Assembly (NCBI GenBank): GCA_934234035.1
Contig: CAKQHH010000030.1
Span: forward strand, 1-18,197
Direction of reading: 5' to 3'
DNA: 18,197 bases
Source: an uncultured Clostridia bacterium
Lineage (GTDB): Bacteria; Bacillota; Clostridia; Peptostreptococcales; Anaerovoracaceae
Position numbers and translations under genes: made by a program. How positions within the stretch are numbered: position 1 is the first letter of the stretch; each line of letters opens with the position of its first letter. Below the pieces are notes generated by a model, which did not search any database, was not told the origin of the DNA, and worked only from the letters and a program-made list of their open reading frames with translations. Below, one piece after another: positions 1 through 18,197 of the stretch.

Positions 1-608
1 TCGGGAATCGCATAAGCAGACTGGATATAATAGCGCTTGGAACCCTGGTTGCAGACAAAATCAATTTCCAGCTGTTTACGGATGTTGGCGCCTTTCTCAT
101 TGGTTTCATACTGCATGATGACACCCTCATCCACATTGAAGCCCCTCATTTTCAGCTCGTTAAAAATAATATTCTCCATGCTGTGAGTTTCTTCAATCTG
201 ACGGAAATTCAACCGGGCATTGCGAAGCCCCATATCCGTAAAATAATACTTTACCGGGGTGTCAATGTATTTCTTTCCCTTCACATCATATCGAATTGCG
301 CTGTCAATCAGGAAGGAATCACAAAGATAATCAATGTACCGCTTGATTGTGGAATTGCTGATTTTCTTTTTCTTAACCGTTTGAAATGTCGCGGACAGTT
401 TCTGCGGATTAGTCAGAGAACCAATCGCGGAGGACAGAATGTTTAAAAGCTCTTCTAATTCTGCTTTGTTGCGAATATTATGCCTGCCAACGATATCCGA
501 AATATAGGTTTCCTCAAAGAGAGATTTCAAAAACGCAATTTTCAATCCGGCGTGGTAAATTCAAGTACCCAGCAGCTGTACTTCATCAAGCAATACATAA
601 TACTCGTC
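1..608 (-). pseudogene. Remnant of AAA/DUF4143-family ATP-binding protein
   Basis: Read on the minus strand, positions 560 to 3 are one open frame. It contains ETYISDIVGRHNIRNKAELE, then YYFTDMGLRNARLNFRQIEE, then LEIDFVCNQGSKRYYIQSA, which is the typical C-terminal (DUF4143, restriction-like fold) half of the COG1373 AAA ATPases. The same frame upstream, behind a TGA stop at 563-561, contains DEYYVLLDEVQLLGT (608-564), which looks like the Walker B segment of this family. The roughly 100 or more residues that normally separate these two blocks are missing, and no Walker A is found before the neighbouring gene at 716. I infer an internal deletion plus loss of the N-terminus. The C-terminal end runs off the window. 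The role of the family is poorly known; this copy is very probably inactive. Confidence 0.8.
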
Positions 609-715: not shown

Positions 716-2449
716 TTACTTTCTTAAGTCATCGTACACGCCGGAGATGTCCTGCCGAAGCGCTTCAATCCGGTGGATGCTTTCGTGCAACTCAGCGATG
801 AGCGATTCTTCTTTTTCGGCAATTCGCTTCTGCTTTTCCGGGTCGATGGCATCGTATTGCAATTCGCAGAGCTGCTTTGGGTTAATGGCAAAAATCATAC
901 TGCCGGTCTGTGCAACGCTGAGGCACAAGTTGCCGTCATCACTGTCGAAGAATGCTTTTAGGTAATATGGCTCTAAAGTGTCGTTGCATCTTACGACAAT
1001 GAGATTCCCCGTCGCGATAATATTTCGATCCTGGATATTTTCCGCAACGGCCGTGCTGATTTTGGTTCCCCGGGCGGAGATAATTACATCGCCGTCTTGC
1101 AGCATGTATTTCTTGTACTTTTCAATTTTGTCAATATGCACTTCCACAAGCTCTTCATCCATGTAGCCGTTGCTGATGTTGGCCAGATTCAGGAGATAGC
1201 CGTTTGGCGCCTTGCCGCCGAGATTCGACATTTCTTTCTGCTTATCGGACGTAATCTGAGCCCCCCTGAAAATGTCTCGGGTTCCTTCGGAAAGCTTCCG
1301 GGCGTTGGTAAAACAAACTTTTTCATCCAGAACGTACCGCATCGGGTCGAAGGAGTAGGTGTTATCCGCAATCGTCCGAGGCGCAACTTCAATATAGTCG
1401 TCGGAAGGACGGTTTTCGTCCTCAAGATTTGCACCACCGTTAAAATACAGGTCCAAGATGCGGTCCCTTTCGGTGTTCGTAAGCACATTTCGGAATTTTA
1501 TTTTTTCATAATAAGAAGCGGCGTTCACCATCTTGATGCGATCGTTGTTCTCACTCAACACCAGCATGGCGATTTGGATGCCGGTATTCATGAGCAGGCC
1601 TTCCGGCAATAAAACGACGCCTTCCAGCGTTCCCGATTCCAGTAGCTCTTTCCGGAATTCTTTTTCGGATTCCAGATACAACAGGCTTGCTCGGATGAAG
1701 GCAATTCCTTTGCCGCCTTCCTTCATCATCTTTCGCATTGCCCGGATGTACGCCCATTCGGAAGAGTGAACGGAAACGCGCTTTGCTGTTTTTTCATCAA
1801 ACAATCCGCATGACAGAAGCTGCTTGGATTCGAGCCGCTGCTTTATCGGCATGTGGCAGAAAACGGCATCGTACTGTGGGAGTTCCGGATTGCGAAAATC
1901 AATATCGAATACGTCTTCACAGCGAATGTTGTTCATATCCCGATTCAGAATGAGCATTTTCATTCGGGCCACGATTGCGTCCTCTTGTTTGATCTCTATG
2001 CCGTGAAGCTCGCCGGCTTTTTCGTGGATTGCGGTTTCGGTCAGAAATACACCTTGGCCGCAGCCGATATCCATTACGGTTTTGGATTCGGAAGGGGCAA
2101 AAACCGCTGCGGCGAGTTTCTCGATATCTCCGCTTGTATACGACCCGTAGATTTCATTATCCCGATTCCGGTAAGCGCTCACAAAATCAGGCACATCGAT
2201 GTCCTCGATGGTGTCTAGGGTTTCCCGAATTCTCCCTGCGTCTTCTTCAGCGGCAAACAGGTCGTGGAAGATGAAAGAGAGAATGTCCCGATGTTCCGGA
2301 CACACTGCGGTATTTAATGTTTCGTGCGCTTCCGAAAGCGCATCCTGTGCCAATGCGTCATCGAGAACTTCTCGTCTAAACATTCGATTCAATGCGAGCA
2401 CACCGAATGTAATTTGGTTCTGAATGACCGGATCGATATTTTTCAACAT
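716..2449 (-). CDS. N6-adenine DNA methyltransferase-like protein fused to an HsdS-type recognition domain; catalytic motif missing
   Basis: 577 aa. The SAM-binding motif I is clear (VMDIGCGQGVFLTET, about residues 125-139). A methyltransferase core follows to about residue 350. The C-terminal part (about 415-575) resembles a type I specificity-subunit recognition domain (LLNLANISNGYMDEE, LQDGDVIISARGTKISTAVA, ATGNLIVVR, YYLKAFFDS, INPKQLCEL) ending in a coiled-coil-like helix. Where motif IV (NPPF/Y or a close variant) is expected, after the strand YDAVF, the sequence is CHMPI (198-202), so the catalytic Asn and the aromatic residue appear replaced. I chose the ATG at 2449-2447 because AGGAGG (2461-2456) lies 6 nt upstream; the longer frame to 2518 would start inside the promoter. 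No restriction subunit is beside it. Family call is confident; activity is doubtful. Confidence 0.85.
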   Translation of the reverse strand: MLKNIDPVIQNQITFGVLALNRMFRREVLDDALAQDALSEAHETLNTAVCPEHRDILSFIFHDLFAAEEDAGRIRETLDTIEDIDVPDFVSAYRNRDNEIYGSYTSGDIEKLAAAVFAPSESKTVMDIGCGQGVFLTETAIHEKAGELHGIEIKQEDAIVARMKMLILNRDMNNIRCEDVFDIDFRNPELPQYDAVFCHMPIKQRLESKQLLSCGLFDEKTAKRVSVHSSEWAYIRAMRKMMKEGGKGIAFIRASLLYLESEKEFRKELLESGTLEGVVLLPEGLLMNTGIQIAMLVLSENNDRIKMVNAASYYEKIKFRNVLTNTERDRILDLYFNGGANLEDENRPSDDYIEVAPRTIADNTYSFDPMRYVLDEKVCFTNARKLSEGTRDIFRGAQITSDKQKEMSNLGGKAPNGYLLNLANISNGYMDEELVEVHIDKIEKYKKYMLQDGDVIISARGTKISTAVAENIQDRNIIATGNLIVVRCNDTLEPYYLKAFFDSDDGNLCLSVAQTGSMIFAINPKQLCELQYDAIDPEKQKRIAEKEESLIAELHESIHRIEALRQDISGVYDDLRK

Positions 2450-2471
2450 GATAGACCTCCTAAAAATATGC

Positions 2472-2549
2472 TTGGTATTTGATAACCTAAATTTAGCACA
2501 CGCGACTGTGGTCGTCAAGAACTTTTTTTGGTATTTGATAACCTAAATT
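2472..2549. promoter_or_regulatory. Two-copy 22-bp direct repeat framing the promoter (probable operators)
   Basis: A 22-bp sequence beginning TTGGTATTTGATAACCTAAA occurs at 2472-2493 and again, unchanged, at 2528-2549 (56 bp between starts). On the minus strand, one copy sits upstream of the -35 box and the other overlaps the -10 box. The inner GGTTATCAAATACC is partly palindromic. This is the layout of a repressor binding at two sites around a promoter. The regulator is unknown; self-regulation by the recognition domain of the methyltransferase-like protein is one possibility. Confidence 0.6.
2490..2518 (-). promoter_or_regulatory. Sigma-A-type promoter of the methyltransferase gene
   Basis: On the minus strand, TTGACG (2518-2513) and TAAATT (2495-2490) are separated by exactly 17 bp, and the predicted start lies a short distance before the AGGAGG and ATG of the methyltransferase gene. 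The -10 box overlaps one copy of a 22-bp direct repeat. Confidence 0.65.
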
Positions 2550-2888: not shown

Positions 2889-5438
2889 ATGGCGAAGGAA
2901 TGTTCTATATGCGGAAAGAAATTGGGTTTCCTGTCGGGGAAAGTGGCGGTATCAGATGGAATCGTTTGCGATTCCTGCTGGTTTGCCGCGGGTCTGGATT
3001 TGAGCATTAATTCCATGATGACCTCGAACACGCGTACCGTGAACCAGCTCCGGGACATGATTGAAATCGAGGTGCTCAAGCGGGCGGCGGAGCTGACGGG
3101 ACGGACAGATCTGGCGGCAGCGGCCCCGCAGGCAGAGGTTCCGGCAGAGAAGACCCCGGCGGTAAAAACAACACCGGCGCGTAAGGCGGGGGCGACCGAT
3201 GCCAAACCGGTGGACATCATTCTGGAAGTGGGTAAGGACCGGAAGGTGAATTTCCAATGCGTGGGACAGCCGGTCATCAACCTGGAAGATTTGATTCAGG
3301 GCAATGAGATGATTATCGGAGATGGTTTCATCCTTAACCAAAGCAAAGAAACCTTGCCGGACGTTCGAATCGCCTGTGAATTCCAGCCGGCCATTGTGGA
3401 CCCGGGACTCCTGTACTACGAAGAGGGTACTTTTACCGCAGGCGTGGAAGGAAAATTCGAAATCGACGACCCGCCGGTGAACCTGGAGGAATACGCGAAA
3501 ATCAAACGCACCCGGAACGGCAAAATCCGTTTCACCCTGTTCATGGGAGAGCAGGAGGTGGGCACCGCGGAGTGCGGCATGCGGGTGAAGCCGGCGCCGG
3601 AAGAGGAAATGCAGAAATACATGAAGTCGGTGATGTACGAGACGGAAAAGAATGCCTCCGGTCCGGTGAACGTGTTTTTATATGCCCGGGCGGACGGAAC
3701 CTTCGACGAGGACCTGATGCGGCGGCCGGACCTGCTGTACGCCATGTACGCCAACGGTCAGGAGCAGCTGATCGGGGACGTGTACGTGGCCAACGAAACC
3801 GGCAAAAAGCTCAAGAACATTCAGTTTCGGGCGGATTTTACGTCGGATATTCTGGAGCCGGTGGATGTTTTTCTGGGGGACGTGCCGGCGGGGGAGAACA
3901 TCGTCTTTGAGGTGGACGACCCGGCCATCAACCTCCGTAAATTAGAGCAGATTACGGAAATCGAGACCTGCACCGCCACCTACACCCTCACCGTGAACGG
4001 CAAAAAAGTCTCGGAGGCCTGCGGCCGTGTGACGATCTGTCCGTACGATCAGTGGAACGGCGCCCTGGTTCTGCTGCCGGCCTACATGACGCCGAACCAT
4101 CCGGATATCATCGGGCTCCTGCAGCAGGCGGCGCGCTGGATGCAGAAGGAAGGCATGAACCCGTCCCTGGAGGGCTATCAGGGCGATGCCAAAAGGGTGG
4201 AAGAGATGACCATGGGCGTGTACAACGCCATAAAAGAAGCCGGCATCATCTACTCGAATCCGCCGGCCAGCTTCTTCGGACCGCAGCGGGTGCGTCTGGG
4301 GGAGACGGTGATGCAGCAGAAATTTGCTACCTGCATGGACATTACCGTGCTCTTCGCTTCCTGTCTGGAATCCTTTGGGCTCCACCCGGTCCTGATTACG
4401 GCACCGGCACATATTTTTGCCGGCGTGTGGCTGACTTCCAAAGGCCGTTGCAGCGAACCGGTTCTTTCCGATACGGCGCAGCTGCGGAAGCTCATTAAGG
4501 AGGGGAAACTGGTGGCTTTGGAATGCACCGCCATGACCCTGGGAAAGAACCTTTCCTACAAAGAGGCGAGGAAGGAAGCGGAAGAAATCCTGAAGGCGCT
4601 GGACGAAAACAAAATCCCGGATAACGATTGCATCGACGTGCAGCTGGTGCGGAACATCGGCATCCGGCCGATTCCGATGCGCCGAAATCCGGCCGGCGTC
4701 ATCGCGGAACCTTCGGTAGAAGCGCCGGCGAAAGCCTCCGGCGAGGCGCCTGCTGAGACCGCTGAGAAGGCACCTCGCAAAACCCCGGCGAAAGAAAAGC
4801 CGGCGGTCCCGGAGATCTCCGAAGCCATTGAAGCTGCAGCTACCGTCAAAACTCCGGCCGCCGCAGCTTCCGCGGAACCTCTCCGCTACATTCGGGAAGA
4901 GTACCGCGTGTTCGAGAAAGACCTCTCGCAGATTACCATCGATAATTTCTACGACCGTCAGACCAAAAAGCTGATCAAGGAGGCCATTTCGGAAATCGTG
5001 CAGGTGGAAGGTCCAATCAGCCAACCGGCCCTGATTCGCACCCTGATTAATTCCACCGGTCTGGGCAGAGCCGGCAAAAACATCTCGGAACACCTAGATA
5101 AGCTGGTGGCAACGGCGGACGTAAAAATCACCCGCCAATCCGGGGTTCGCTTCCTGTGGAATCACGGTTCGAATCCGGCAGACTATCACACCTTCCGTTT
5201 CCGGGAACAGCGGAATACGGAGGACATCTGCAAATACGAACTGAAGAATGCCGTGTGCTGCCTGCTTCAGGAGAACGGCCCTATGACCAAGGAGGAAATT
5301 ACCAAAGCCATGGTGAACCTTCTGGGATACAGCCGCTCCAGCCACCGAATCGAGGAATGCGCGGCGGATGCCATCAAGGCGGCCCGGGAGTTGAAAGCCA
5401 TCGAGCAGAATGAGCGGAAGCAGTTTGTAGTGCGTTGA
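2889..5438 (+). CDS. DUF4428 zinc finger - beta-sandwich - transglutaminase-like - DUF3320 protein
   Basis: 849 aa, start supported by AAAGGAGG shortly before the ATG. Domains in order: a CxxC...CxxC zinc finger (residues 5-30, CSIC and CDSC, DUF4428 type); an Ala/Pro linker (about 75-110); two related beta-sandwich modules (about 113-235 and 245-385), each with an F-E-(I/V)-DDP-x-(V/I)-NL stretch; a transglutaminase-like domain (about 390-600) with C482 in ATCMDIT, H508 in APAHIFAGVWL and probable E545 in LECTAMT; a second Ala/Pro/Glu linker (about 605-660); and a DUF3320 winged-helix-like domain (from about 666, with EGPISQPALIRTL and FLWNHG). The same modules flank the SF1 helicase and nuclease of the large DUF4011/DUF3320 helicases; here no helicase or nuclease motif exists. 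No signal peptide or membrane segment is seen, so it should be cytoplasmic. Substrate unknown. The fic gene follows after 10 bp. Confidence 0.8.
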   Translation: MAKECSICGKKLGFLSGKVAVSDGIVCDSCWFAAGLDLSINSMMTSNTRTVNQLRDMIEIEVLKRAAELTGRTDLAAAAPQAEVPAEKTPAVKTTPARKAGATDAKPVDIILEVGKDRKVNFQCVGQPVINLEDLIQGNEMIIGDGFILNQSKETLPDVRIACEFQPAIVDPGLLYYEEGTFTAGVEGKFEIDDPPVNLEEYAKIKRTRNGKIRFTLFMGEQEVGTAECGMRVKPAPEEEMQKYMKSVMYETEKNASGPVNVFLYARADGTFDEDLMRRPDLLYAMYANGQEQLIGDVYVANETGKKLKNIQFRADFTSDILEPVDVFLGDVPAGENIVFEVDDPAINLRKLEQITEIETCTATYTLTVNGKKVSEACGRVTICPYDQWNGALVLLPAYMTPNHPDIIGLLQQAARWMQKEGMNPSLEGYQGDAKRVEEMTMGVYNAIKEAGIIYSNPPASFFGPQRVRLGETVMQQKFATCMDITVLFASCLESFGLHPVLITAPAHIFAGVWLTSKGRCSEPVLSDTAQLRKLIKEGKLVALECTAMTLGKNLSYKEARKEAEEILKALDENKIPDNDCIDVQLVRNIGIRPIPMRRNPAGVIAEPSVEAPAKASGEAPAETAEKAPRKTPAKEKPAVPEISEAIEAAATVKTPAAAASAEPLRYIREEYRVFEKDLSQITIDNFYDRQTKKLIKEAISEIVQVEGPISQPALIRTLINSTGLGRAGKNISEHLDKLVATADVKITRQSGVRFLWNHGSNPADYHTFRFREQRNTEDICKYELKNAVCCLLQENGPMTKEEITKAMVNLLGYSRSSHRIEECAADAIKAARELKAIEQNERKQFVVR

Positions 5439-5448
5439 GGAGTAAAAG

Positions 5449-6459
5449 ATGAATGAATATACCCCACCTTTCCAAATGACGGAAGAAATCACCAATTTGA
5501 TTATTGAAATCGGAGAATACGTTGGATCCATTTCAACATATGAATCGCTGCATGCGAATCCTGTTTTGCGGCGGGAGAATCGAATCCGATCGATTCACTC
5601 GTCGTTGGCCATTGAACAGAACACATTAACATTAGAGCAAGTAACAGATATTGTGAATGGGAAACGGGTTCTGGGACCTCCGGAGGATGTACGGGAAGCA
5701 AAAAACGCGTATGAAGCATATGAGCTTGCATCACAACTAAATCCATATGATGTTAGAGATTTGCTGAAGGCACATAAGATTATGATGGGAGGACTTGTTC
5801 GTGAAGCGGGCATCTTTCGGTCAAATAATGTAGGAGTCTATTCCGGAACCGAACTGATTCATGCAGGGACTCCCGCAAATTACGTGCCGGAAGTAATGGA
5901 GCAGTTATTTTCCTGGTTGAAAAAATCAAAGTACCATCCGCTGGTGAAGAGTTGTATTTTTCACTATGAGTTTGAATTTATCCATCCGTTTGCGGATGGA
6001 AACGGTCGAACCGGTAGGTTATGGCAATCGCTGATTTTACAGAAATGGAAGCCCTTTTTTGCATGGCTGCCTATAGAGACTTTGGTTCATGAGAATCAGG
6101 AAGTATATTACAATGCGTTGCAGACGGCAAATAATATGGGGGAGTCAACTGTTTTTGTAGAATTTATGCTTGAAATAATTCGGGATGCTTTGCGAGAAAT
6201 TGAAACTCAGAATACGAACGAAGAGAATGCTACAGCAGAACAATTAATGGATGAAAGCAATGTTAAAGGCGGTCTTGTTGTAAATGAAGAAAGAATTTTA
6301 AAACTGCTAGAGCAAGATGGGCATCTTACCGCAAATGTATTGGCAAGCACACTTGGAATTACATCCAGACAAGCACAAAGAATCTTGGCGAAGCTAAAAA
6401 AAGCGGGAAAAATTGTTCGCCATGGAGCTAGTAAGAACGGATGGTGGGAGGTCCGCTAG
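5449..6459 (+). CDS. Fic-family protein (predicted protein AMPylase) with C-terminal winged helix
   Basis: 336 aa, a normal length for this family. The active-site motif is intact: HPFADGNGR at residues 179-187, followed by TGRLW. In this family it transfers AMP, or another nucleotide or phosphate moiety, onto a target protein. An N-terminal helix carries SSLAIEQNTLTLEQV with E56, corresponding to the inhibitory (S/T)xxxE(G/N) motif of class II Fic proteins, though with Q after the Glu. The C-terminus (about 285-336) is a winged helix-turn-helix (VLASTLGITSRQAQRILAKL). The ATG is preceded by GAGGAG and starts 10 bp after the upstream gene, suggesting co-transcription and coupling. Its sequence is visibly richer in A+T than the upstream partner, so the two may have different histories. 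Targets are unknown. Confidence 0.9.
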   Translation: MNEYTPPFQMTEEITNLIIEIGEYVGSISTYESLHANPVLRRENRIRSIHSSLAIEQNTLTLEQVTDIVNGKRVLGPPEDVREAKNAYEAYELASQLNPYDVRDLLKAHKIMMGGLVREAGIFRSNNVGVYSGTELIHAGTPANYVPEVMEQLFSWLKKSKYHPLVKSCIFHYEFEFIHPFADGNGRTGRLWQSLILQKWKPFFAWLPIETLVHENQEVYYNALQTANNMGESTVFVEFMLEIIRDALREIETQNTNEENATAEQLMDESNVKGGLVVNEERILKLLEQDGHLTANVLASTLGITSRQAQRILAKLKKAGKIVRHGASKNGWWEVR

Positions 6460-6851: not shown

Positions 6852-6961
6852 GGCGGCCCGGGACTAATTTGGGACGCCGGCCGAAAACCCTCCGGGACTT
6901 GGTGCACCGGAAACGGAGTCACAAGGGTTTGTGGGATTTTGTGGACCAAGCCCGTGCCGCC
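6852..6961. other. Possible branched RNA fold
   Basis: GGCGGCCCGGG (6852-6862) can pair with CCCGTGCCGCC (6951-6961) with one mismatch. Directly inside on the 3' strand, CTTGGTGCAC (6898-6907) can pair with GTGGACCAAG (6941-6950) with one mismatch. Inside that is CACAA-GGGT-TTGTG (6920-6933). The left arm 6863-6897 has a further CCGG...CCGG palindrome. No protein frame with a start signal covers it. The nesting is suggestive but was judged by eye in GC-rich DNA. Confidence 0.35.
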
Positions 6962-7042
6962 TGCCGGCCGGAAACAGTGTTGTTCTAATAGAATTATCTG
7001 TATTCCAGACGCACAATCCCATATGCCTAGAAAATTAAGGGC

Positions 7043-7620: not shown

Positions 7621-8469
7621 ATGAGATTGAAACTGGTGATGAAGGATCGGGAATATCGGGATGCGTTGGCGGAGCGAATTCGCCGGAGCCGGTGGAACCT
7701 GTACGTGATAATCGAAGATAATTTTCGGATGGAAGAGGATACGCTGCTGGTGACGGATGTGGGCGAAGGCAAGCTGCGGGAAGGCATGGTGCTGCTGAGC
7801 TCGGAGTGCCGGCGGGAGGTGGAAGGCAAGGGCCCCTATGTGTTGTTCAAGTATGCCGGCGTGGATGAATTGCTGACGGACCTGCGGCTGTGCGCTTTTC
7901 TCTGGACGGGAAAAGGAGATTTGCGAAGGGGCGAGGACCGCATCGTTACCGTGGGTGCGGTGGAGCGCACGGATCTGGGGCACCGGCTGGCGGAACAGGT
8001 GGCTTTGGAATTGGGAGAGGGTCTGGAAGAACCGGTACTGCTGCTGGATTTAACGTATTTTTATCGGGAGGGGCAGCCGGAAGAATCGGGGAATACCTTT
8101 CGGAAGCTGGTGTACTACCTTCAGAGCGGGAAGAACATTCCGGTGGAGGTGTTTTTTCGGCGGGAGACGGGGAACGTGTTTCGGATCCGGATGCCGCGGG
8201 GGATGAACGAGCTGATGCGGATTCCGGGAGCGGAGTGCTTGGAGCTGATTCGAGAGATGGGACGGTATTTTTCGGCGGTGGTGTGCAGCGTGGGGGATTG
8301 TTTCTCGGAGCGGAACATCGAGTTGATGAAGAATTCCGAGTGGTGCATCTACATGGCGGAGGAAGATATGCGGGAATATTTTCCGAAGACGTCGCTGGTG
8401 GTGCCGGAGCGGGCCGGGGAGATTCGGAATGCGGCGCGGCTGGTACAAGGAATTTTGGCGACGCCGTGA
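7621..8469 (+). CDS. TadZ/CpaE-like Tad pilus assembly protein without P-loop
   Basis: 282 aa; ATG with GAGAGGAC upstream. The N-terminal part (about 1-115) looks like the atypical receiver domain of TadZ/CpaE. The C-terminal part (about 125-282) matches the layout of a MinD/ParA fold (RIVTVGAVERTDLGHRLAEQ, then EPVLLLDLTYFY), but the Walker A Gly-Lys-Thr/Ser is absent: the expected place reads GAVERTDLGH. TadZ proteins localise the pilus machine at the membrane; this one probably does not hydrolyse ATP. It is the first gene of the Tad operon, 45 bp before the TadA start. The identification rests on position and fold-like pattern more than on conserved residues. Confidence 0.65.
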   Translation: MRLKLVMKDREYRDALAERIRRSRWNLYVIIEDNFRMEEDTLLVTDVGEGKLREGMVLLSSECRREVEGKGPYVLFKYAGVDELLTDLRLCAFLWTGKGDLRRGEDRIVTVGAVERTDLGHRLAEQVALELGEGLEEPVLLLDLTYFYREGQPEESGNTFRKLVYYLQSGKNIPVEVFFRRETGNVFRIRMPRGMNELMRIPGAECLELIREMGRYFSAVVCSVGDCFSERNIELMKNSEWCIYMAEEDMREYFPKTSLVVPERAGEIRNAARLVQGILATP

Positions 8470-8514
8470 GTGCGGAACACCAGCAACGGCGGAGCACAAT
8501 ACAAAGGAGACAAG

Positions 8515-9741
8515 ATGCTGAAGGAAGTGACGGAAAAGTACAGCCGGGAGCTGGATGGTTTTATCCGGGAATTGCGGAAGAAGTTGTCCCACTCGGAGGT
8601 GACGGAGGATGCGGAGCGGCTGCTGAAATATGTGGAGGATGAGTTTTTCGGGTCGGAGCTGGCCGGCCGGGTGGAGTACTGGGAGATTTGCGATATGGTG
8701 CGGGCGGTGTACCTTCGCCTCCGGAGCAAGTACGGAATCCTGCAGGAATATTTGGAGGATCCGGCCATCAACGAGATTATGGTGAACGGGCCGGAGCATA
8801 TTTTTGTGGAGAAGAACCGGAAGGTACAGGCGGTGGACAATGCGTTCATTTCGGCGGAGGAACTGGAGGGAGTGATTCGCATGCTGGCATCGGACGTGCA
8901 CCGGGAGATCAACGAAGCGAATCCCATCGTGGACGCGCGGATGCCCAGCGGGTACCGGATCAACGGGGTGCTTCGGAATGTGGCGCTAAACGGGCCGGCT
9001 CTCACCATCCGGAAGTTCGCAGAATCCATGATTACCATGGAGGAGCTGGTGCAGCGGAAGAGTTTGACGGAGGAGTGCAAGGAGGACCTGTGTGCGCTGA
9101 CGGAGTGCGGATACAATATTTTTATCAGCGGCGGAACCTCCTCGGGCAAAACCACGATGCTCAATGCGCTGGCGTCCTACATTCATCCGGAGGAGCGGGT
9201 GGTGATTATTGAGGATTCCGCGGAGCTGCAGCTGAACCACTTGGAGAACCGGGTACAGATGGAGTGCCGCAGTGCCAATTCCATCGGGAAGGGGGAGGTG
9301 CGGATGGACCAATTGATTCGCACCAGCCTGCGGATGCGGCCGGACCGGATTATCGTGGGGGAAGTGCGAGGCGGGGAGGTTTTGGACATGATTCAGGCCA
9401 TGAACACGGGGCATTCCGGGAGCATTTCCACCGGCCACGGAAATTCCATTCGGGGCATGCTGAACCGACTGGAGACCATGTACATGATGGGCGCCCCGGT
9501 GCCGGTGTACACGGTGCGGAATCAGATTGCCAATGCCATTGAGATTTTCGTGCACCTGAAGCGAGACGGCGATGGGAACCGGCGGGTGATGGAAGTGGCG
9601 GAGCTGGCGGGTTTCGACGGAAAGGAATACAACATCAATTATCTGTATCGTACCGATGGGGCGGGGGAACTGGTTCGAACCGGGAACGCGCTGCTGCATC
9701 GGGACAACCTAAAAAGAGGTGGCATGAATGACCGACTTTAG
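8515..9741 (+). CDS. tadA: TadA/CpaF-type pilus assembly ATPase
   Basis: 408 aa. This hexameric secretion ATPase powers Flp pilin assembly at the inner face of the membrane. Visible motifs: NPIVDARMPSGYRINGV (about 136-152), Walker A GGTSSGKT (206-213), Asp box VVIIEDSAEL (about 229-238), Walker B RIIVGEVRGGE (about 279-289) and His box GHSGSISTGHGNS (about 299-311). All are intact. I chose the ATG at 8515 because AAAGGAG lies 5 nt upstream; a GTG at 8470 in the same frame has no such site. Its 3' end overlaps the next gene by 14 bp, so translation is probably coupled. Confidence 0.95.
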   Translation: MLKEVTEKYSRELDGFIRELRKKLSHSEVTEDAERLLKYVEDEFFGSELAGRVEYWEICDMVRAVYLRLRSKYGILQEYLEDPAINEIMVNGPEHIFVEKNRKVQAVDNAFISAEELEGVIRMLASDVHREINEANPIVDARMPSGYRINGVLRNVALNGPALTIRKFAESMITMEELVQRKSLTEECKEDLCALTECGYNIFISGGTSSGKTTMLNALASYIHPEERVVIIEDSAELQLNHLENRVQMECRSANSIGKGEVRMDQLIRTSLRMRPDRIIVGEVRGGEVLDMIQAMNTGHSGSISTGHGNSIRGMLNRLETMYMMGAPVPVYTVRNQIANAIEIFVHLKRDGDGNRRVMEVAELAGFDGKEYNINYLYRTDGAGELVRTGNALLHRDNLKRGGMNDRL

Positions 9742-10471
9742 AATTTATGAAATGTCCCAAAAGGAGAACGCGTTGTTCTACGGGGTTTCCGGGGCGGTCG
9801 CCCTGCTCGTGGCCCTGTTGTTCTACCGAAACATCCTGTTCGGCGCGGTGATTATCCCCTTTCTGCCGCGGCTGAGAAAATTCGCCGTGGAGATTCTAAA
9901 GGAACGAAGAAGGCGGGAGTACCTGATGCAGTTCAAGGATTTCCTGTTCATCGCCGCCACTTCCATCGGCGCCGGGCGGTCCATGAAGGATTCCATCGAA
10001 GAGGCGATCCCCCGGATGGCGGATATTTACGATGAAGATGCTCTTCTGGTGCGGGAAATGAAACTCGTTCATCAGCGAATTGAGCACGGAAACGAAGACG
10101 ATGTGGATGTGCTGGCGGATTTGGCCGCCTTGAGCGGGCAGGAGGATGTGATCGATTTCGTGACCATCTACGCCACCTGCAAAATCACGGGGGCCAGCTT
10201 AATCCGAGCCATGAACCAGGCCGCCATGGTGATCATCGACAAGATGACCATCGAGCGGGAAATCCGGGAGCTGATTCGGCGAAAGGAACAGGAAGGGCTG
10301 ATCATCCTCCTGGCACCGGTGGTGGTGATTTGTTTTCTGAACCTGGCCTCGCCGGACTACATCGCCCCCATGTACGAAACCATTCGGGGGCGGCTGATTA
10401 TGACGGGAATGATTGGAGCGAATATTGGAATTTATGAATTGGTGCAGCGGATTGTAAAGGTGAAGATATGA
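9728..10471 (+). CDS. tadB: TadB-like membrane platform protein (T2SSF)
   Basis: 247 aa. Hydrophobic segments lie at about 17-50, 192-210 and 219-240, enclosing a cytoplasmic helical domain (FKDFLFIAATSIGAGRSMKDSIEEAI ... LIRAMNQAAMVIIDKMTIEREI) typical of the type II secretion F / GspF-like family. With the next protein it should form the platform on which the TadA ATPase acts. The start overlaps tadA by 14 bp and has AGAGGTGG 5 nt upstream. The end overlaps tadC by ATGA. Confidence 0.9.
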   Translation: MTDFRIYEMSQKENALFYGVSGAVALLVALLFYRNILFGAVIIPFLPRLRKFAVEILKERRRREYLMQFKDFLFIAATSIGAGRSMKDSIEEAIPRMADIYDEDALLVREMKLVHQRIEHGNEDDVDVLADLAALSGQEDVIDFVTIYATCKITGASLIRAMNQAAMVIIDKMTIEREIRELIRRKEQEGLIILLAPVVVICFLNLASPDYIAPMYETIRGRLIMTGMIGANIGIYELVQRIVKVKI

Positions 10472-11514
10472 GTGAAAAAATAAAGCAAATCGCAGAATCG
10501 AAGGTCGTCCGGTGGATCCGGGAGATGCTTCGGCGGATTCGGGCGGACCCGGCGCTGCTTCGGCAGCTTTATGGAATTACGCTGGTGTGCGCCCTTTTCC
10601 TGGCTTCTTTTGTGATAAAGAGCGGTCTGGAATCGGGAAAATACATCGTGGACGGAAGTGGCAACGTGACGGGGATTCAGCGGCGGTCCCTCAATTCCTA
10701 CGAGGAGTACCCCGTGCGGGTGCGGATTCAGGGAAAGGACGAGGTGCTGGAGAAGGAGGTGATTATTTCCAAGCGTTCTCTGAAGGAGATGGAGGAAAGC
10801 CGGAACGCCGGGAAGAAAGACCGGCGAAAGGAGGTGAAGCAGAACCGGGAGATGGAGCTGGGCCGGATTCTTTCCGACATCGAATCGTCTGCGGGCAAAA
10901 AGATTGAGTTTCCGTCGGAGCTTTCCGATGGCAGCCCCATCACTTGGCAGAAGGGAGATCCGGGGCGCAGCGAAGAGCTGACCATTCTTGGAATGTACTG
11001 TCTGTTGGTTGGAATGGTGCTCTACAGCCGCCTGGCTCCCCGCAAGAAGAAAAAGGGCGACGACGGACTTCTTCGAGGACTTCCCCGGTTCGTGAATCAG
11101 CTGGTGATGATGCTTTATGCCGGCGTGATTCTCAGCGATGCCTTTGACCGAATCTGCCAGAGCTATTCCATGATTCCGGCGGAGGCCCGAAGCGATTTCG
11201 AAAACGAGATGGTGGAGCTGTACCGCGCGCACCGGGATCACCGGGTGAGTACGGCCATGCTGCTGAATCATTTTGCGGGAATGCACAACGTAAAGGAAAT
11301 GCTGCGAATTTCCACCATCCTGCTGGAAAACGAACGTCGGGGAAGCGACGTGGTGGAAAGTCTCAGCCGGGAGAGCCGATTTCTGTGGGAGGAGCGGAAA
11401 ATCGTGGCGGCGGAGAAGGGCAAAGCCATCGATACCAAAATGGCCGGGCCCCTGGGCCTGCTGCTGATCCTGCTGATTGTGGTGACCATGGCACCGGCGA
11501 TTCTGGTGATGTGA
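10468..11514 (+). CDS. tadC: TadC-like membrane platform protein with long extracytoplasmic loop
   Basis: 348 aa. Transmembrane segments are predicted at about 36-53, 174-190 and 328-348. The helical T2SSF domain (LPRFVNQLVMMLYAGVILSDAFDRI ... LRISTILLENERRGSDVVESL) lies between the last two. Between the first two is a hydrophilic stretch of about 115 residues rich in Lys, Arg and Glu, longer than the short loop expected for TadC. The start overlaps tadB by 4 bp. It is the presumed partner of TadB in the platform. Confidence 0.85.
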   Translation: MSEKIKQIAESKVVRWIREMLRRIRADPALLRQLYGITLVCALFLASFVIKSGLESGKYIVDGSGNVTGIQRRSLNSYEEYPVRVRIQGKDEVLEKEVIISKRSLKEMEESRNAGKKDRRKEVKQNREMELGRILSDIESSAGKKIEFPSELSDGSPITWQKGDPGRSEELTILGMYCLLVGMVLYSRLAPRKKKKGDDGLLRGLPRFVNQLVMMLYAGVILSDAFDRICQSYSMIPAEARSDFENEMVELYRAHRDHRVSTAMLLNHFAGMHNVKEMLRISTILLENERRGSDVVESLSRESRFLWEERKIVAAEKGKAIDTKMAGPLGLLLILLIVVTMAPAILVM

Positions 11515-11547
11515 GGAAATGATTTGTTTGAAAGGGAGGTAATTGCG

Positions 11548-11700
11548 ATGATGAAATTGTTGAAACAGAAGCGAGGCATGGAAATGGTGCAGGTGGCCAT
11601 ACTGGTGGCCATTGCGGTGGCCCTGGGAATTATTTTCAAATCCCAGATTACCGCGTTCGTTAACGAAGTGTTCTCCAAGCTGGACGCGGGCCAGTTCTGA
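11548..11700 (+). CDS. flp: Flp1-like type IVb pilin (major pilin)
   Basis: 50 aa, a typical size for a Flp pilin. The sequence is a short basic leader (MMKLLKQKRG), then MEMVQVAILVAIAVALGIIF as the hydrophobic helix, then a short tail ending DAGQF. Prepilin peptidase would cut after Gly10; an acidic residue follows at mature position 2 rather than the usual position 5. A strong GGGAGG site precedes the ATG (a second ATG follows directly). It sits between the platform genes and the TadE-like gene, where the pilin is expected in Firmicutes Tad loci. Confidence 0.85.
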   Translation: MMKLLKQKRGMEMVQVAILVAIAVALGIIFKSQITAFVNEVFSKLDAGQF

Positions 11701-11702
11701 CC

Positions 11703-12035
11703 ATGAAAGGGATTCTGAAAAGTCGCCGGGGAAATGAATTTGTGGAGGCGGCCGTGGCCATTCCCCTGATTACCGCAGCGGTATTGCTCATTCTAAATCT
11801 CTTTGTTTTCTATCTTAATATTTTGGCAACCGGGGTGAAAGGCCACAAGGAGGCTTGTCGGCGCTGGGATTCGGACCGGGAGGCGGTGATAAAAATATAT
11901 CGGAAGAGCGAAAGCGTCCGGATGGCGCCGGCGGGCATTCTGCGGACGCGGCCGGAATGCCGGCTGGAAATTCGGTCCTATGAATTTAACGAGGATTTGT
12001 TGGTGCGAGCAAAGGAAGTGCTTCATGAAGAATAG
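11703..12035 (+). CDS. TadE-like pseudopilin
   Basis: 110 aa. It has a basic leader with a prepilin-like site (KSRRG|NEFVEAAVAIP), one hydrophobic helix (about 14-38) and a short extracytoplasmic domain without cysteine pairs of note. TadE-type minor pilins are processed by the prepilin peptidase and help start the pilus. It begins 2 bp after the pilin stop codon and overlaps the next gene by 11 bp. Confidence 0.75.
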   Translation: MKGILKSRRGNEFVEAAVAIPLITAAVLLILNLFVFYLNILATGVKGHKEACRRWDSDREAVIKIYRKSESVRMAPAGILRTRPECRLEIRSYEFNEDLLVRAKEVLHEE

Positions 12036-13347
12036 AAAAGGCTCTGCCACCGTTCTGATGGCGATGATTTCGGTATCCCTTAGCATGGCGATTCTTTCTT
12101 CTATTATAATAATCCGGCAGATGACGCTGAACAGCATCTGCCGGAGCTACGGAAACGTGTGGACCCGGGGAATCCTGTCGGAATACGACCGGCACCTCCT
12201 TCGGGATTACGGCATCATGGGATTCTACGGAAACAATCCGGAGGTGGCGAAGAAATTGGAATATTACATGCACTATTCCCTGAGCAACCGGCTTCAGGTG
12301 CGCAGCCTGTCGGCTACGGCGGATCTGAACGGCTATGAGCTGTCGGCGCCGGAAAATTTCCGGAAAGCCATGGCCAACAGCTTCGGGACGGAGTCCCTGG
12401 AGGTGCTGCTGAAGAAGGAAAAAAGAAAGGACCGAGGGGACCTTGCGGCTCCGGAGAAGCCGGGGGATAAGGGCGCGCAAAAGACCGAGAACCTTCCCCG
12501 GGAAATCAAGAATCCGGTGGTGCTGCACACCCTGCCTTCGGCTCAAGGGGAAAGCTCTTTTTCCCCGGATTCGGTAATCGAAGCGCTGAAGTCCGGAAAA
12601 TTCGTTTCCCCCGGCGGCGGGTCGGTAAAAAACGTCCCCATGGAAATTGTTTTTATGAGAAAGTACATGAACAGCTATCGCCGGACGGCGGACGGAAAGA
12701 AACATTACTTTCGAAACGAATGGGAGTACGTTCTCAAAGGGGCGGCGAACGACGAGACCAACCTGAAAAGCTGCCGGCGGCGCCTTTTCCTGATTCGGAA
12801 CGGGCTGAATCTGGCCTACCTGTACAAGGATCCGGAGAAGGTGGAGGTGGTGACGGCGATTGCGGAAATCATCTCGCCGGGCCCCATGGGGGTGGTGACC
12901 CAGGGCATTCTCATGGAAGCCTGGGCGGCGCTGGAGTCGGAGAAGGACGTCGAGAATCTGCTGGCGGGCAGGCGGGTGCCGGTGATGAAAACCGCGGCCA
13001 CCTGGAACACGGGCATTGAGGGAATCCTAAAGGACGAGGAGGTGCAAAAAAAATTAGACGAGGATTCCCGGAAGCTGCTGAAGGAGAAAGGGGGTGAGGT
13101 GTCGGAGGCTGCCGGGAAGTCTGCCGGAAAAGCGATAGAGGAAGGGCTGGATTACGAAGAGTACCTGATGATTATGATTCTGGTCCTGCCGGAGGAAACC
13201 CGGCTGCGCCGCCTCATGGACCTGGTGCAGATTAACATGAAATATCGGTATTACCGGGATTTTAACCTGGCGGAATATTACGGAGGGGTGAGTTTTGCGA
13301 TTCATGTTAACGGAAAAAAATATGCGTACAGCAGAGAATATCGGTAA
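12025..13347 (+). CDS. DUF5702-type Tad locus protein
   Basis: 440 aa. A short N-terminus (MKNRKGSATVLMAMISVSLS) leads into one membrane helix (about 8-30) resembling TadG-type minor pilin-like proteins. The rest should be outside the membrane, with a charged linker at about 130-165 and a conserved-looking block from about 210 to the end (NEWEYVLKGAANDETNLKSC, LIRNGLNLAYLYKDP, AWAALESEKDVENLLAGRRV, GLDYEEYLMIMILVL). This pattern fits DUF5702, found in Firmicutes Tad loci. I chose the ATG at 12025 because AAAGGAAG lies just upstream; starting at 11980 would add an unrelated tail. Function unknown, probably pilus-associated. Confidence 0.75.
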   Translation: MKNRKGSATVLMAMISVSLSMAILSSIIIIRQMTLNSICRSYGNVWTRGILSEYDRHLLRDYGIMGFYGNNPEVAKKLEYYMHYSLSNRLQVRSLSATADLNGYELSAPENFRKAMANSFGTESLEVLLKKEKRKDRGDLAAPEKPGDKGAQKTENLPREIKNPVVLHTLPSAQGESSFSPDSVIEALKSGKFVSPGGGSVKNVPMEIVFMRKYMNSYRRTADGKKHYFRNEWEYVLKGAANDETNLKSCRRRLFLIRNGLNLAYLYKDPEKVEVVTAIAEIISPGPMGVVTQGILMEAWAALESEKDVENLLAGRRVPVMKTAATWNTGIEGILKDEEVQKKLDEDSRKLLKEKGGEVSEAAGKSAGKAIEEGLDYEEYLMIMILVLPEETRLRRLMDLVQINMKYRYYRDFNLAEYYGGVSFAIHVNGKKYAYSREYR

Positions 13348-14843: not shown

Positions 14844-16832
14844 ATGGAAATCATCCGCGCGGATCGGTCTGGCTTCTGTTTTGGCGTGCAGCGAGCCATC
14901 GATTTGACCATGGAACAGATTGAGAAAAATGAAAAGGGGGAGAAGCGTCCCCTGTACACCTGCGGACCGCTGATTCACAATCGGTCGGTAACCGGCGCCC
15001 TGGAAGAGAAGGGCGTGGGAATGATTCAGGACATCGAGGAAGCCTCGGAGGGGGATGTGGTGATCATCCGCTCTCACGGAGAGCCGGAATCGTTCTATCG
15101 CACGGCGGAGGAGAAGGGGGTTGCCCTGGTGGACTCCACCTGTGTTTTTGTGACAAAAATTCATGACATCGTTCACAAAGCCCATGCGGAGGAGAAGGGC
15201 ATCATCATCGTGGGCAATCCGGAACACCAGGAGGTCATTGCCACCAACGGCTGGTGCGATTATCGGGGGCACATTCTGCAGGACCGAGAGGACGCAGGGG
15301 CGCTGGCGCAGGACCACCCGGAACTGTTTGAGGCGGGCCGGAAACCGGTGATTGTATGTCAGACTACTTTTAAGGTGGAAATCCTGGAAGAGATTCTGGA
15401 TGTTTTTAAGGGCAAAAAATACGAATACGAGCTGTACAACACCATTTGCAGTGCGACGAGAGAGCGGCAGGATGCATGCCGGGATTTGGCCCAAAAAGTA
15501 GAATTGATGGTGGTCATCGGCGACCGGCACAGCTCCAACTCGCGGAAATTATTCGAAATCGCGAAAGAAAATTGTAAAAATTCAATTCTTATACAAGATA
15601 TTTCAGATTTACAGTTGAAACAAGCCGCAAAATATAATAAAATAGGTGTAACCGCGGGTGCATCGACACCTGAATGGATAATTAAGGAGGTTATTGCTAG
15701 TATGAGCGAAAATGTCACAAACACCACAGAAAAGAATCCAATGCTGGATTTCATGGATGACATTGAGAATTCTTTGCGTCTGCCAAGACCGGGAGATGTT
15801 GTTGAAGGTAAGGTGCATCAGGTAACAGAAGATGAAGTCATTGTTAACATCGGATGCAAGAAGGACGGAATCCTGAAGAAGGCTGAAGTATCCCTGGAAG
15901 AGGGTCAGTCTCTGAAGGACGTTTTCCAGGAGGGAGACACCGTTCAGGCCAAAGTCATGAAGACGGACGACAACGATGGCGGAATTCTTCTTTCCAAGAA
16001 GAAACTGGAAATTAATGAGAATTACAAAGAACTCAACGAAGCCATGGAGAACAAGGAGACGCTCTCCGTTAAACTGAGCAAGAAAGTTAATGGCGGCGTA
16101 ATTGCAGTTTACAAGGAAGTTACCGGATTTGTACCGATGTCCCAGCTCGCTGACACCTTTGTCACAGAAGAGAACGTCGATGATTTCATCGGCCAGACTG
16201 TTGATATCAAGGTTCTGAGAGTTGACAACAAGCGGAACAGAGCGGTATTCTCCAGAAAAGCTGTACTAGTTGAAGAGAAGCATAAGCAGGTTGCTGAAGT
16301 ATGGGCAAACCTGAATGTTGGCGACATCGTAGAAGGTAAGGTTATGAGATTTACCGATTACGGTGCATTCGTTGACATCGGTGGCGTTGATGGTCTGCTG
16401 CACATTTCTGAAATTTCTTGGGGCAAGCTGAAGAACCCTCAGGAAGTTCTGAACATCGGAGACATCATCAATGTTAAGATTCTGTCCCTCAACGAAGAGA
16501 AGGGTAAGATTTCTCTGGGTCTGAAGCAGACAACACCGGAACCATGGTCTCAGGTTGGTACGAAATACCAGATCGGTGGAATCATCACCGGTAAGGTTGT
16601 ACAGATCAAAGAGTATGGTGCTTTTGTTGAACTGGAAGCAGGTCTGGACGGACTGGTTCACATTTCGGAAATCGCAAACAAGAGAGTTGAGAACGTTTCC
16701 GACGAGCTGAGCCTGGGTCAGGAAATCACCGCAAAGATCATGGACATCGATTCCGACAGAAAGAGAATCAGCCTGAGCATCAAAGCTGCATTGAACAACG
16801 ATGAAGCAGAGGAAGCACAGGACGAGGAATAG
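14844..16832 (+). CDS. ispH: IspH (HMBPP reductase) fused to ribosomal protein S1 domains
   Basis: 662 aa. Residues 1-286 are IspH, the iron-sulphur enzyme that makes IPP and DMAPP in the last step of the MEP isoprenoid pathway. The three cluster cysteines are present (C12 in GFCFGV, C100 in DSTCVFV, C202 in NTICSATRERQ), as are the motifs LIHN, RSHG and QTTF. Residues from about 315 to 650 form four S1 RNA-binding domains (for example FTDYGAFVDIGGVDGLLHIS and IKEYGAFVELEAGLDGLVHI), as in ribosomal protein S1. Such fusions are known in Clostridia. AGGAGG lies 9 nt before the ATG. The S1 half changes in codon style and has its own strong internal translation signal at 15684-15702, so a separate S1 protein is likely made as well. 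Confidence 0.95.
   Translation: MEIIRADRSGFCFGVQRAIDLTMEQIEKNEKGEKRPLYTCGPLIHNRSVTGALEEKGVGMIQDIEEASEGDVVIIRSHGEPESFYRTAEEKGVALVDSTCVFVTKIHDIVHKAHAEEKGIIIVGNPEHQEVIATNGWCDYRGHILQDREDAGALAQDHPELFEAGRKPVIVCQTTFKVEILEEILDVFKGKKYEYELYNTICSATRERQDACRDLAQKVELMVVIGDRHSSNSRKLFEIAKENCKNSILIQDISDLQLKQAAKYNKIGVTAGASTPEWIIKEVIASMSENVTNTTEKNPMLDFMDDIENSLRLPRPGDVVEGKVHQVTEDEVIVNIGCKKDGILKKAEVSLEEGQSLKDVFQEGDTVQAKVMKTDDNDGGILLSKKKLEINENYKELNEAMENKETLSVKLSKKVNGGVIAVYKEVTGFVPMSQLADTFVTEENVDDFIGQTVDIKVLRVDNKRNRAVFSRKAVLVEEKHKQVAEVWANLNVGDIVEGKVMRFTDYGAFVDIGGVDGLLHISEISWGKLKNPQEVLNIGDIINVKILSLNEEKGKISLGLKQTTPEPWSQVGTKYQIGGIITGKVVQIKEYGAFVELEAGLDGLVHISEIANKRVENVSDELSLGQEITAKIMDIDSDRKRISLSIKAALNNDEAEEAQDEE
15615..15704 (+). 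promoter_or_regulatory. Internal promoter and ribosome binding site for the S1 half
   Basis: Inside the fusion gene, AAGGAGG (15684-15690) is followed 11 nt later by an in-frame ATG (15702) that opens MSENVTNTTEKNPMLDF, a plausible natural N-terminus of S1. Just upstream, TTGAAA (15615-15620), 17 bp and TAAAAT (15638-15643) form a possible promoter in a locally A+T-rich stretch. The binding site is clear; the promoter is less certain. Confidence 0.5.
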
Positions 16833-17906: not shown

Positions 17907-18197
17907 AGGCCGGCCGGCTTCTCCTGAACCCGGCCTCAGGGACCTCCCGGTTTGCGCACGCCTCTTCTGAAAGCCAATGAAATCGGTTTTCGTACGCAAA
18001 CCAAGGCCGGCTGGCCCCTCTCGAACCCGGCCTCAGGGGCTTCCCGGTTTGCGTACGCCTCCTCTGAAAGCCAATGAAATCGGTTTTCGTACGCAAACCA
18101 AGGCCGGGCGGTCCCTCCTAAACCCGGCCTCAGGGGCTTCCCGGTTTGCGTACGCCTCCTCTGAAAGCCAATGAAATCGGTTTTCGTACGCAAACCA
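17907..18197. repeat. Three tandem 97-bp repeat units, running off the window
   Basis: Units are 17907-18003, 18004-18100 and 18101-18197, each starting AGGCCGG and ending CGTACGCAAACCA. Each can form two hairpins. The first is AGGCCGG...CCGGCCT. The second is GGTTTGCGTACG paired with CGTACGCAAACC (for example 18046-18057 with 18088-18099), with an inner AAAGCC/GGTTTT stem. The first part of each unit, after AGGCCGG, is the most variable; the long hairpin loop is nearly invariant. A period of 97 is not a multiple of 3, so the array is not a protein repeat, although open frames occur on the minus strand. Confidence 0.95.

What the first reader, a model, noticed from the sequence alone, without database searches (positions are those of the whole stretch)
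2889..6459. Helicase-less DUF3320/transglutaminase-like protein paired with a Fic protein
The 849-aa protein carries the N-terminal beta-sandwich, transglutaminase-like and C-terminal DUF3320 parts that in known families surround an SF1 helicase and nuclease, but here these are replaced by an Ala/Pro linker and a DUF4428 zinc finger is added at the front. The Cys-His-Glu set looks intact, so it may be a protease or acyl transferase. A Fic enzyme with an intact active site follows after 10 bp. Two potential protein-modifying enzymes in one unit, beside a methyltransferase-like protein and an ATPase relic, suggest an undescribed conflict or regulatory system.
Basis: partly seen in the sequence, partly recalled or inferred. 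Interest (0 to 1): 0.75.

Follow-up and report, generated by a model that had tools for sequence, protein, structure and literature searches.

The report
Helicase-less offshoot of anti-phage ProA
A bacterial gene looks like a giant anti-phage protein that has lost its DNA motor and scissors but kept an intact protein-processing active site and a DNA-binding-type tail; the neighbouring Fic gene is probably just a passenger.

Summary
The anatomy is real. The 849-aa protein (2889-5438) has a DUF4428 finger, a duplicated beta-sandwich, a transglutaminase-like (TGL) domain, a variable linker and a DUF3320/winged-helix tail. It resembles the ends of anti-phage ProA without DUF4011, helicase or nuclease. 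A focused AlphaFold model (pLDDT 86) matches TGL-fold proteins. The triad C482-H508-E545 is invariant in 38 chosen short forms and intact in 12 of 17 helicase-type loci examined. Full-length short forms occur in 5 of 349 Anaerovoracaceae genomes and in no other family sampled. They form one clade, show purifying selection (dN/dS 0.07, one pair), and lie within 10 kb of methyltransferase genes in 3 of 5 genomes. One homologue is fused to an exonuclease.

The Fic pairing fails: in 0 of 4 relatives with a visible downstream flank is fic intact, and in the closest it is a wreck. Fic occurs in 32 of 349 genomes, none with the large gene, and differs in GC3. Best reading: a helicase-free ProA derivative acting as a DNA-bound cysteine peptidase or acyltransferase, probably in defence; activity untested.

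The parts
2889..5438 (+). 849-aa helicase-less ProA-type protein (DUF4428 - 2x beta-sandwich - TGL - linker - DUF3320/wHTH x2)
   Evidence: dN/dS 0.073 against the L020 copy
2898..3056 (+). DUF4428 zinc finger (residues 4-56; C5, C8, C27, C30 invariant)
   Evidence: Pfam PF14471 31.9 bits, over cut-off; invariant cysteines in 38 sequences
3201..3596 (+). beta-sandwich 1 (about residues 105-236)
   Evidence: strands at mostly pLDDT 75-91; repeat of sandwich 2, E 6.6e-13; some sandwich-fold matches cover it
3666..4058 (+). beta-sandwich 2 (about residues 260-390); start of the part shared with ProA
4056..4688 (+). transglutaminase-like domain (about residues 390-600)
4332..4334 (+). codon of C482, predicted nucleophile at the N-terminus of the core helix
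4410..4412 (+). codon of H508
4521..4523 (+). codon of E545
4692..4886 (+). variable Ala/Pro/Lys/Glu linker (residues 602-666), at the place where ProA has DUF4011, helicase and nuclease
   Evidence: alignments; pLDDT about 25-45; domain order of ProA
4941..5087 (+). DUF3320 / first winged helix (residues 685-733)
   Evidence: PF11784 46.2 bits; helices
5175..5435 (+). second winged-helix-like unit (about residues 763-849)
   Evidence: helices and terminal strands in the model; PADLOC PDC-S37 match to 842
5449..6459 (+). Fic protein with C-terminal HTH (SoFic-like); adjacent passenger, not judged part of the system
   Evidence: motif at H179, codon at 5983; relic in L020; GC3 0.383
716..2518 (-). 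divergent N6_Mtase / specificity-like protein with CHMP at motif IV; neighbour seen only in the M. kristiansenii copy
3..545 (-). DUF4143 ATPase remnant lacking its N-terminal half
   Evidence: intact 420-aa copy in L002/L020

Best explanation
The 849-aa protein is a helicase- and nuclease-free offshoot of the ProA-type anti-phage proteins. It probably arose once and is kept by selection in a few Anaerovoracaceae. SHOWN: its anatomy, an intact and conserved TGL triad, the TGL fold (predicted), one cluster on the tree, low dN/dS in the one pair measured, no DUF4011 found in the same assemblies, and no conserved fic. INFERRED: it works alone. The DUF4428 finger and the doubled sandwiches anchor it or hold a partner; the two winged helices contact DNA or a DNA-protein complex; the TGL domain then acts as a cysteine peptidase or acyltransferase on a protein, most likely a phage protein on DNA or a host factor whose loss stops infection. 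The motor and DNA-cutting step of ProA has been dispensed with or handed to other nucleases; in one natural homologue an exonuclease is fused on. Fic is an independent, probably recently acquired neighbour.
Confidence: 0.45

Rival explanations
1. A long-resident, non-defence gene: a DNA-associated TGL peptidase of the host (regulatory or housekeeping) that merely descends from ProA.
For: GC3 0.718, as in the Tad-region genes (0.71-0.76), and low dN/dS 0.073; very common in the sequence collections (cluster P0001 stands for 1726 sequences).
Against: Full-length in only 5 of 349 family genomes, in different neighbourhoods; near R-M genes in 3 of 5; the helicase-bearing kin are annotated anti-phage.
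Confidence: 0.25
2. Accessory part of neighbouring restriction-modification systems, or a trans-acting subunit that works with any nearby helicase-nuclease.
For: Type III R-M and an OLD/AriA-like gene in G288, type I R-M in G213, DruE-like and methyltransferase genes in G001.
Against: The neighbouring system is different each time, and no PF02384 or PF01555 methyltransferase lies on the 8.6 and 6.2 kb contigs of G116 and G290.
Confidence: 0.15
3. The TGL fold is used as a scaffold for DNA or protein binding, as in Rad4/XPC, and the protein is not an enzyme.
Against: Triad invariant in 38 of 38 aligned short forms. In the model C482 is the first residue of the core helix, H508 the first of the next strand but one, E545 just after the following strand, the usual TGL places (recalled); distances were not measured.
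Confidence: 0.08
4. One reading: the large protein and Fic form one two-enzyme conflict system.
For: 10-bp spacing, same strand, intact Fic motif; the close relative once had the same pair.
Against: 0 of 4 relatives with a visible downstream flank have an intact fic there; wreck in L020; no shared genomes; different GC3.
Confidence: 0.07
5. A decaying remnant of a deleted ProA gene.
For: A broken copy exists in G091: two pieces, the TGL part missing.
Against: dN/dS 0.073, conserved triad and zinc ligands at about 62% identity, a whole cluster with an added finger and a doubled sandwich.
Confidence: 0.02

Closest known systems
ProA anti-phage protein (NCBIfam NF058533)
   Same: Second beta-sandwich, TGL domain and a DUF3320 tail, with the same C-H-E triad in 12 of 17 helicase-type loci examined.
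   Different: No DUF4011, SF1 helicase or MTES_1575 nuclease; adds a DUF4428 finger and a second sandwich; scores 346 of the 1500 bits required.
MTES_1575-type giant proteins (HEPN/transglutaminase/SF1 helicase/Vsr/wHTH) described by Anantharaman et al. 2013 (PMC3710099; passages read)
   Same: Transglutaminase-like peptidase joined to wHTH (overlapping DUF3320); those authors suggested protein cleavage as a further line of defence.
   Different: No helicase, Vsr nuclease or HEPN in the window protein.
SNIPE homologues (PMC13190303; two figure-legend passages read)
   Same: DUF4428 at the N-terminus of some anti-phage proteins that lack a predicted transmembrane segment.
   Different: SNIPE is a nuclease; no other shared domain was noted.
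Transglutaminase-like superfamily: PNGase, transglutaminases 2/3, factor XIII, bacterial 3kd4 and 3isr
   Same: Predicted fold and order of the triad.
   Different: About 10% identity, different partner domains, substrate unknown.
SoFic-like Fic with C-terminal HTH
   Same: The window's Fic matches PADLOC SoFic over residues 7-325.
   Different: A different gene; judged a passenger here.

Membership tests
ProA (NF058533) | Full-length model score of at least 1500 bits | tested here: not met
   346.3 bits; best stretch covers model positions 3-349 of 1903
ProA (NF058533) | N-terminal sandwich plus TGL domain | tested here: met
   E 3.7e-103, best stretch 285-632; triad shared with 12 of 17 helicase-type loci
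ProA (NF058533) | DUF4011, SF1 helicase and MTES_1575 nuclease | tested here: not met
   No Pfam match at E <= 1 in the window protein, whereas two full ProA proteins show all three; DUF4011 not found in the 5 short-form genomes
ProA (NF058533) | DUF3320 / winged-helix C-terminus | tested here: met
   PF11784 46.2 bits; PDC-S37 C-terminal match
ProA (NF058533) | Protects against phage | not testable with these tools
   needs a phage challenge
Transglutaminase-like superfamily | TGL (papain-like) fold | tested here: met
Transglutaminase-like superfamily | Cys-His-Asp/Glu triad | tested here: met
   C482, H508, E545 invariant in 38 aligned short forms; geometry not measured
Transglutaminase-like superfamily | Sequence match over the Pfam cut-off | tested here: not met
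   The window segment has no TGL match at E <= 1; 5 of 23 relatives hit Transglut_core and 6 of 23 DUF553 at weak E-values
DUF4428 | Match over the gathering score with paired cysteines | tested here: met
   31.9 bits against 27.8; C5, C8, C27, C30 invariant
Fic adenylyltransferase (SoFic-like) | HPFx(D/E)GN(G/K)R motif (recalled) | tested here: met
   HPFADGNGRTGR at 179
Fic adenylyltransferase (SoFic-like) | Inhibitory motif (S/T)xxxE(G/N) (recalled) | tested here: inconclusive
   SLAIEQ at residue 52, with Q at the last place
Conserved two-gene system large protein + Fic | Recurrent adjacency in other genomes | tested here: not met
   0 of 4 relatives with a visible downstream flank have an intact fic; relic in L020; G290 not testable by flank, but no fic at E <= 1e-40 in its assembly

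The most novel reading that the evidence does not exclude
A minimal immune protein in which the proteolytic part of a giant helicase-nuclease defence protein works on its own: a DNA-docked TGL peptidase that stops phages by cutting or crosslinking protein rather than DNA, and that is sometimes re-armed by fusion to a different nuclease. That would make the TGL domain of the ProA/MTES_1575 proteins an effector in its own right.
Probability: 0.25. Interest if true: 0.7.

Novelty: new variant of a known kind. Interest (0 to 1): 0.45.

Why it matters
The transglutaminase-like domain of the giant MTES_1575-type defence proteins was described in 2013 with only a suggested role in protein cleavage (PMC3710099, passages); my searches of the held library listed no later test of it. 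A natural version without the helicase and nuclease isolates that domain in an 849-aa protein that can be cloned, mutated at one cysteine and assayed. It makes the question whether proteolysis is an effector of these systems directly testable.

Tried and rejected
Fic as partner: rejected. With fic in 32 of 349 genomes, finding it in none of the six genomes with the large gene (whole or broken) is expected by chance more often than not, so the disjoint distribution shows lack of association only. Split ProA with the helicase encoded elsewhere: not supported; no DUF4011 in the 5 short-form assemblies, G279 positive. Decay product: rejected on selection and conservation. Mobile-element cargo: no short form in viral contigs; an alignment of TGL domains found 8 loci there, all in open frames of 1876-2207 aa. 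One phage record and 78 plasmid records match, none covering 80% of the query. A weak PDB match of the tail to 60S L31 (E 0.00097) and one of the TGL alignment to a deaminase (E 0.093) were taken as chance. The full-length AlphaFold model was poor in the TGL part (mean pLDDT 64.4); its PDB matches reflect the beta-sandwiches and were not used for the TGL claim. A search of viral structures gave weak, mostly unnamed matches. The third protein search listed only long forms at least 92% like the query and was not used. No Rfam family at gathering score and no tRNA in the window. The publication behind the NCBIfam name ProA was not found. DUF3320 occurs in one held paper, and a search combining it with Fic gave the same paper. 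Recurrence with fic was checked only in whole genomes; the metagenome contigs behind P0001-P0226 could not be read.

Rows dropped before counts: alignment A3 and the tree left out the four loci that had lost the triad (L042, L043, L046, L048) and L051, so '23 of 23' is by choice; the unselected figure is 12 of 17 loci. A2 holds the window and 37 of 226 listed proteins. The matches that cover only fragments were not all examined. The defence-neighbourhood chance (about 0.001) is post hoc, uses methyltransferase loci counted by hand, and counts the degenerate methyltransferase as the G001 neighbour (another methyltransferase gene lies about 9 kb away there). On checking, 'none of five relatives has fic' became 'none of four with a visible flank', and the Fic rival was raised from 0.05 to 0.07 for that reason.
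Full report
WHAT IS THERE. The window's 849-aa ORF (2889-5438, +) and the 336-aa Fic ORF (5449-6459, +) lie 10 bp apart. Pfam finds DUF4428 (residues 4-56) and DUF3320 (685-733), both over their cut-offs. NCBIfam's anti-phage ProA model matches in two stretches, the better one residues 285-632 at model positions 3-349 of 1903, with E 3.7e-103 for the whole protein but only 346 of the 1500 bits required. PADLOC's PDC-S37 matches the tail at its positions 1362-1542 of 1550. For comparison, the full ProA proteins in L021 (a genome of the same family) and L001 score over the ProA cut-off and carry DUF4011, AAA_11/AAA_12, the MTES_1575 nuclease and DUF3320. So the window protein has the two ends and not the middle.

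RELATIVES. The one species hit in the named genome collection is Mogibacterium kristiansenii (L002; family Anaerovoracaceae). In a search of 349 genomes of its family, 10 match and 5 hold full-length short forms (G001 at 97%; G290, G288, G213, G116 at 62-64%). One more (G091) holds a broken copy without the TGL part, one (G279) a 2434-aa full ProA, and three (G148, G178, G193) only partial matches. Samples of the order (13 of 393 with a match), class (21 of 391) and phylum (11 of 398), which overlap one another, gave no full-length short form outside these genomes; long open frames there run from 1355 to 2435 aa, and other matches are fragments that were not all examined. On the TGL tree the 22 short rows are one side of a branch (100/100) of length 2.07, next to long forms including G279. 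The tree is midpoint-rooted, has long branches and omits the five loci named above, so a single loss of the helicase is the natural reading but is not proved. Between the window and L020, dN/dS is 0.073. DUF4011 was not found in the five short-form genomes. Of the 226 proteins listed by two searches (the best 120 shown of 428 and of 416), one, P0206, carries a further Pfam domain: an N-terminal exonuclease (RNase_T, E 5.3e-27) fused to a complete short form.

NEIGHBOURHOODS AND FIC. The contexts differ. G288 has a type III methyltransferase, a helicase with a weak type III match and an OLD/AriA-like gene; G213 has type I R-M and a PDC-S05 gene; G001 has a DruE-like helicase and a methyltransferase further upstream. 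The 8.6 and 6.2 kb contigs of G116 and G290 carry no PF02384 or PF01555 match; other defence genes were not searched for there. Methyltransferase genes lie within 10 kb in 3 of 5; by a rough post hoc estimate chance would give that about once in a thousand. Four of the five relatives show their downstream flank and none of the four has an intact fic there; the contig of G290 ends 132 bp downstream, and its assembly has no fic at E <= 1e-40. In L020, otherwise collinear with the window apart from the ATPase deletion, fic is reduced to four pieces totalling about 340 of 1011 bp and lacks the H179 codon. Fic relatives (E <= 1e-40) occur in 32 of 349 family genomes, none of which is among the 10 with a match to the large gene; that is lack of association, not avoidance. 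They are also found on plasmid records of other phyla. GC3 is 0.718 for the large gene, 0.71-0.76 for five Tad-region genes, 0.57 and 0.64 for two other downstream genes, and 0.383 for fic. The window's Fic is a SoFic-like protein with a C-terminal HTH.

HOW IT MOST LIKELY WORKS. Shown: a conserved helicase-less protein with an intact TGL triad. Inferred: the zinc finger and sandwiches anchor it or hold a partner, the winged helices meet DNA or a DNA-protein complex, and the TGL site cleaves or transfers on a protein. In some SNIPE homologues without a predicted membrane segment DUF4428 stands at the N-terminus (figure-legend passages of PMC13190303), which makes a targeting role plausible. 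Anantharaman et al. suggested protein cleavage as a further line of defence for the giant TGL-helicase-Vsr proteins (PMC3710099, passages). A short form without the DNA machinery is what one would expect if that line can stand alone. A resident non-defence role remains a serious rival because of the host-like GC3.

VERDICT. The Fic pairing is not conserved where it could be tested. What is left is a new variant of a known kind, worth a simple cloning and C482A test.

Noticed in passing
window 716-2518 (-): N6_Mtase/specificity-like protein with DIGCG but CHMP in place of the catalytic NPPY-type motif (motif recalled), also in the 92%-identical L020 copy; possibly a non-modifying DNA-recognition protein.
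   Followed up: partly
window 3-545 (-); L020 12054-13316 (-): DUF4143 ATPase: the N-terminal half is gone in the window, while an intact 420-aa copy sits at the same place in M. kristiansenii. Both copies of this region have lost pieces of genes by deletion (ATPase here, fic there).
   Followed up: partly
P0206 (1227 aa): Natural fusion of an RNase_T-type exonuclease to a complete short form, the only listed protein of 226 with a further Pfam domain.
   Followed up: partly
L042, L043, L046, L048: Helicase-type relatives whose TGL triad is lost: probably catalytically dead versions of the domain.
   Followed up: no
window 17907-18197; also 6876-6975: 97-bp tandem repeat, 3 copies at 92% match, at the window's right edge; the roughly 97-bp stretch at 6876-6975 recurs several times in L020 near its contig end.
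   Followed up: no
window 7621-13347: Run of genes that look like a Tad-type pilus/secretion locus (recalled likeness, not searched).
   Followed up: no
window 14844-16832: 662-aa ORF that looks like an IspH-S1 fusion (recalled likeness, not searched).
   Followed up: no
L020 1-10289: DruE-like helicase, type II-like methyltransferase and a 1134-aa protein without a PADLOC match at 1e-10, in a row, all of low GC3: a possible helicase-centred defence operon.
   Followed up: partly
L019 (G091): Broken copy of the large gene: front and tail kept in separate frames, TGL part missing.
   Followed up: partly
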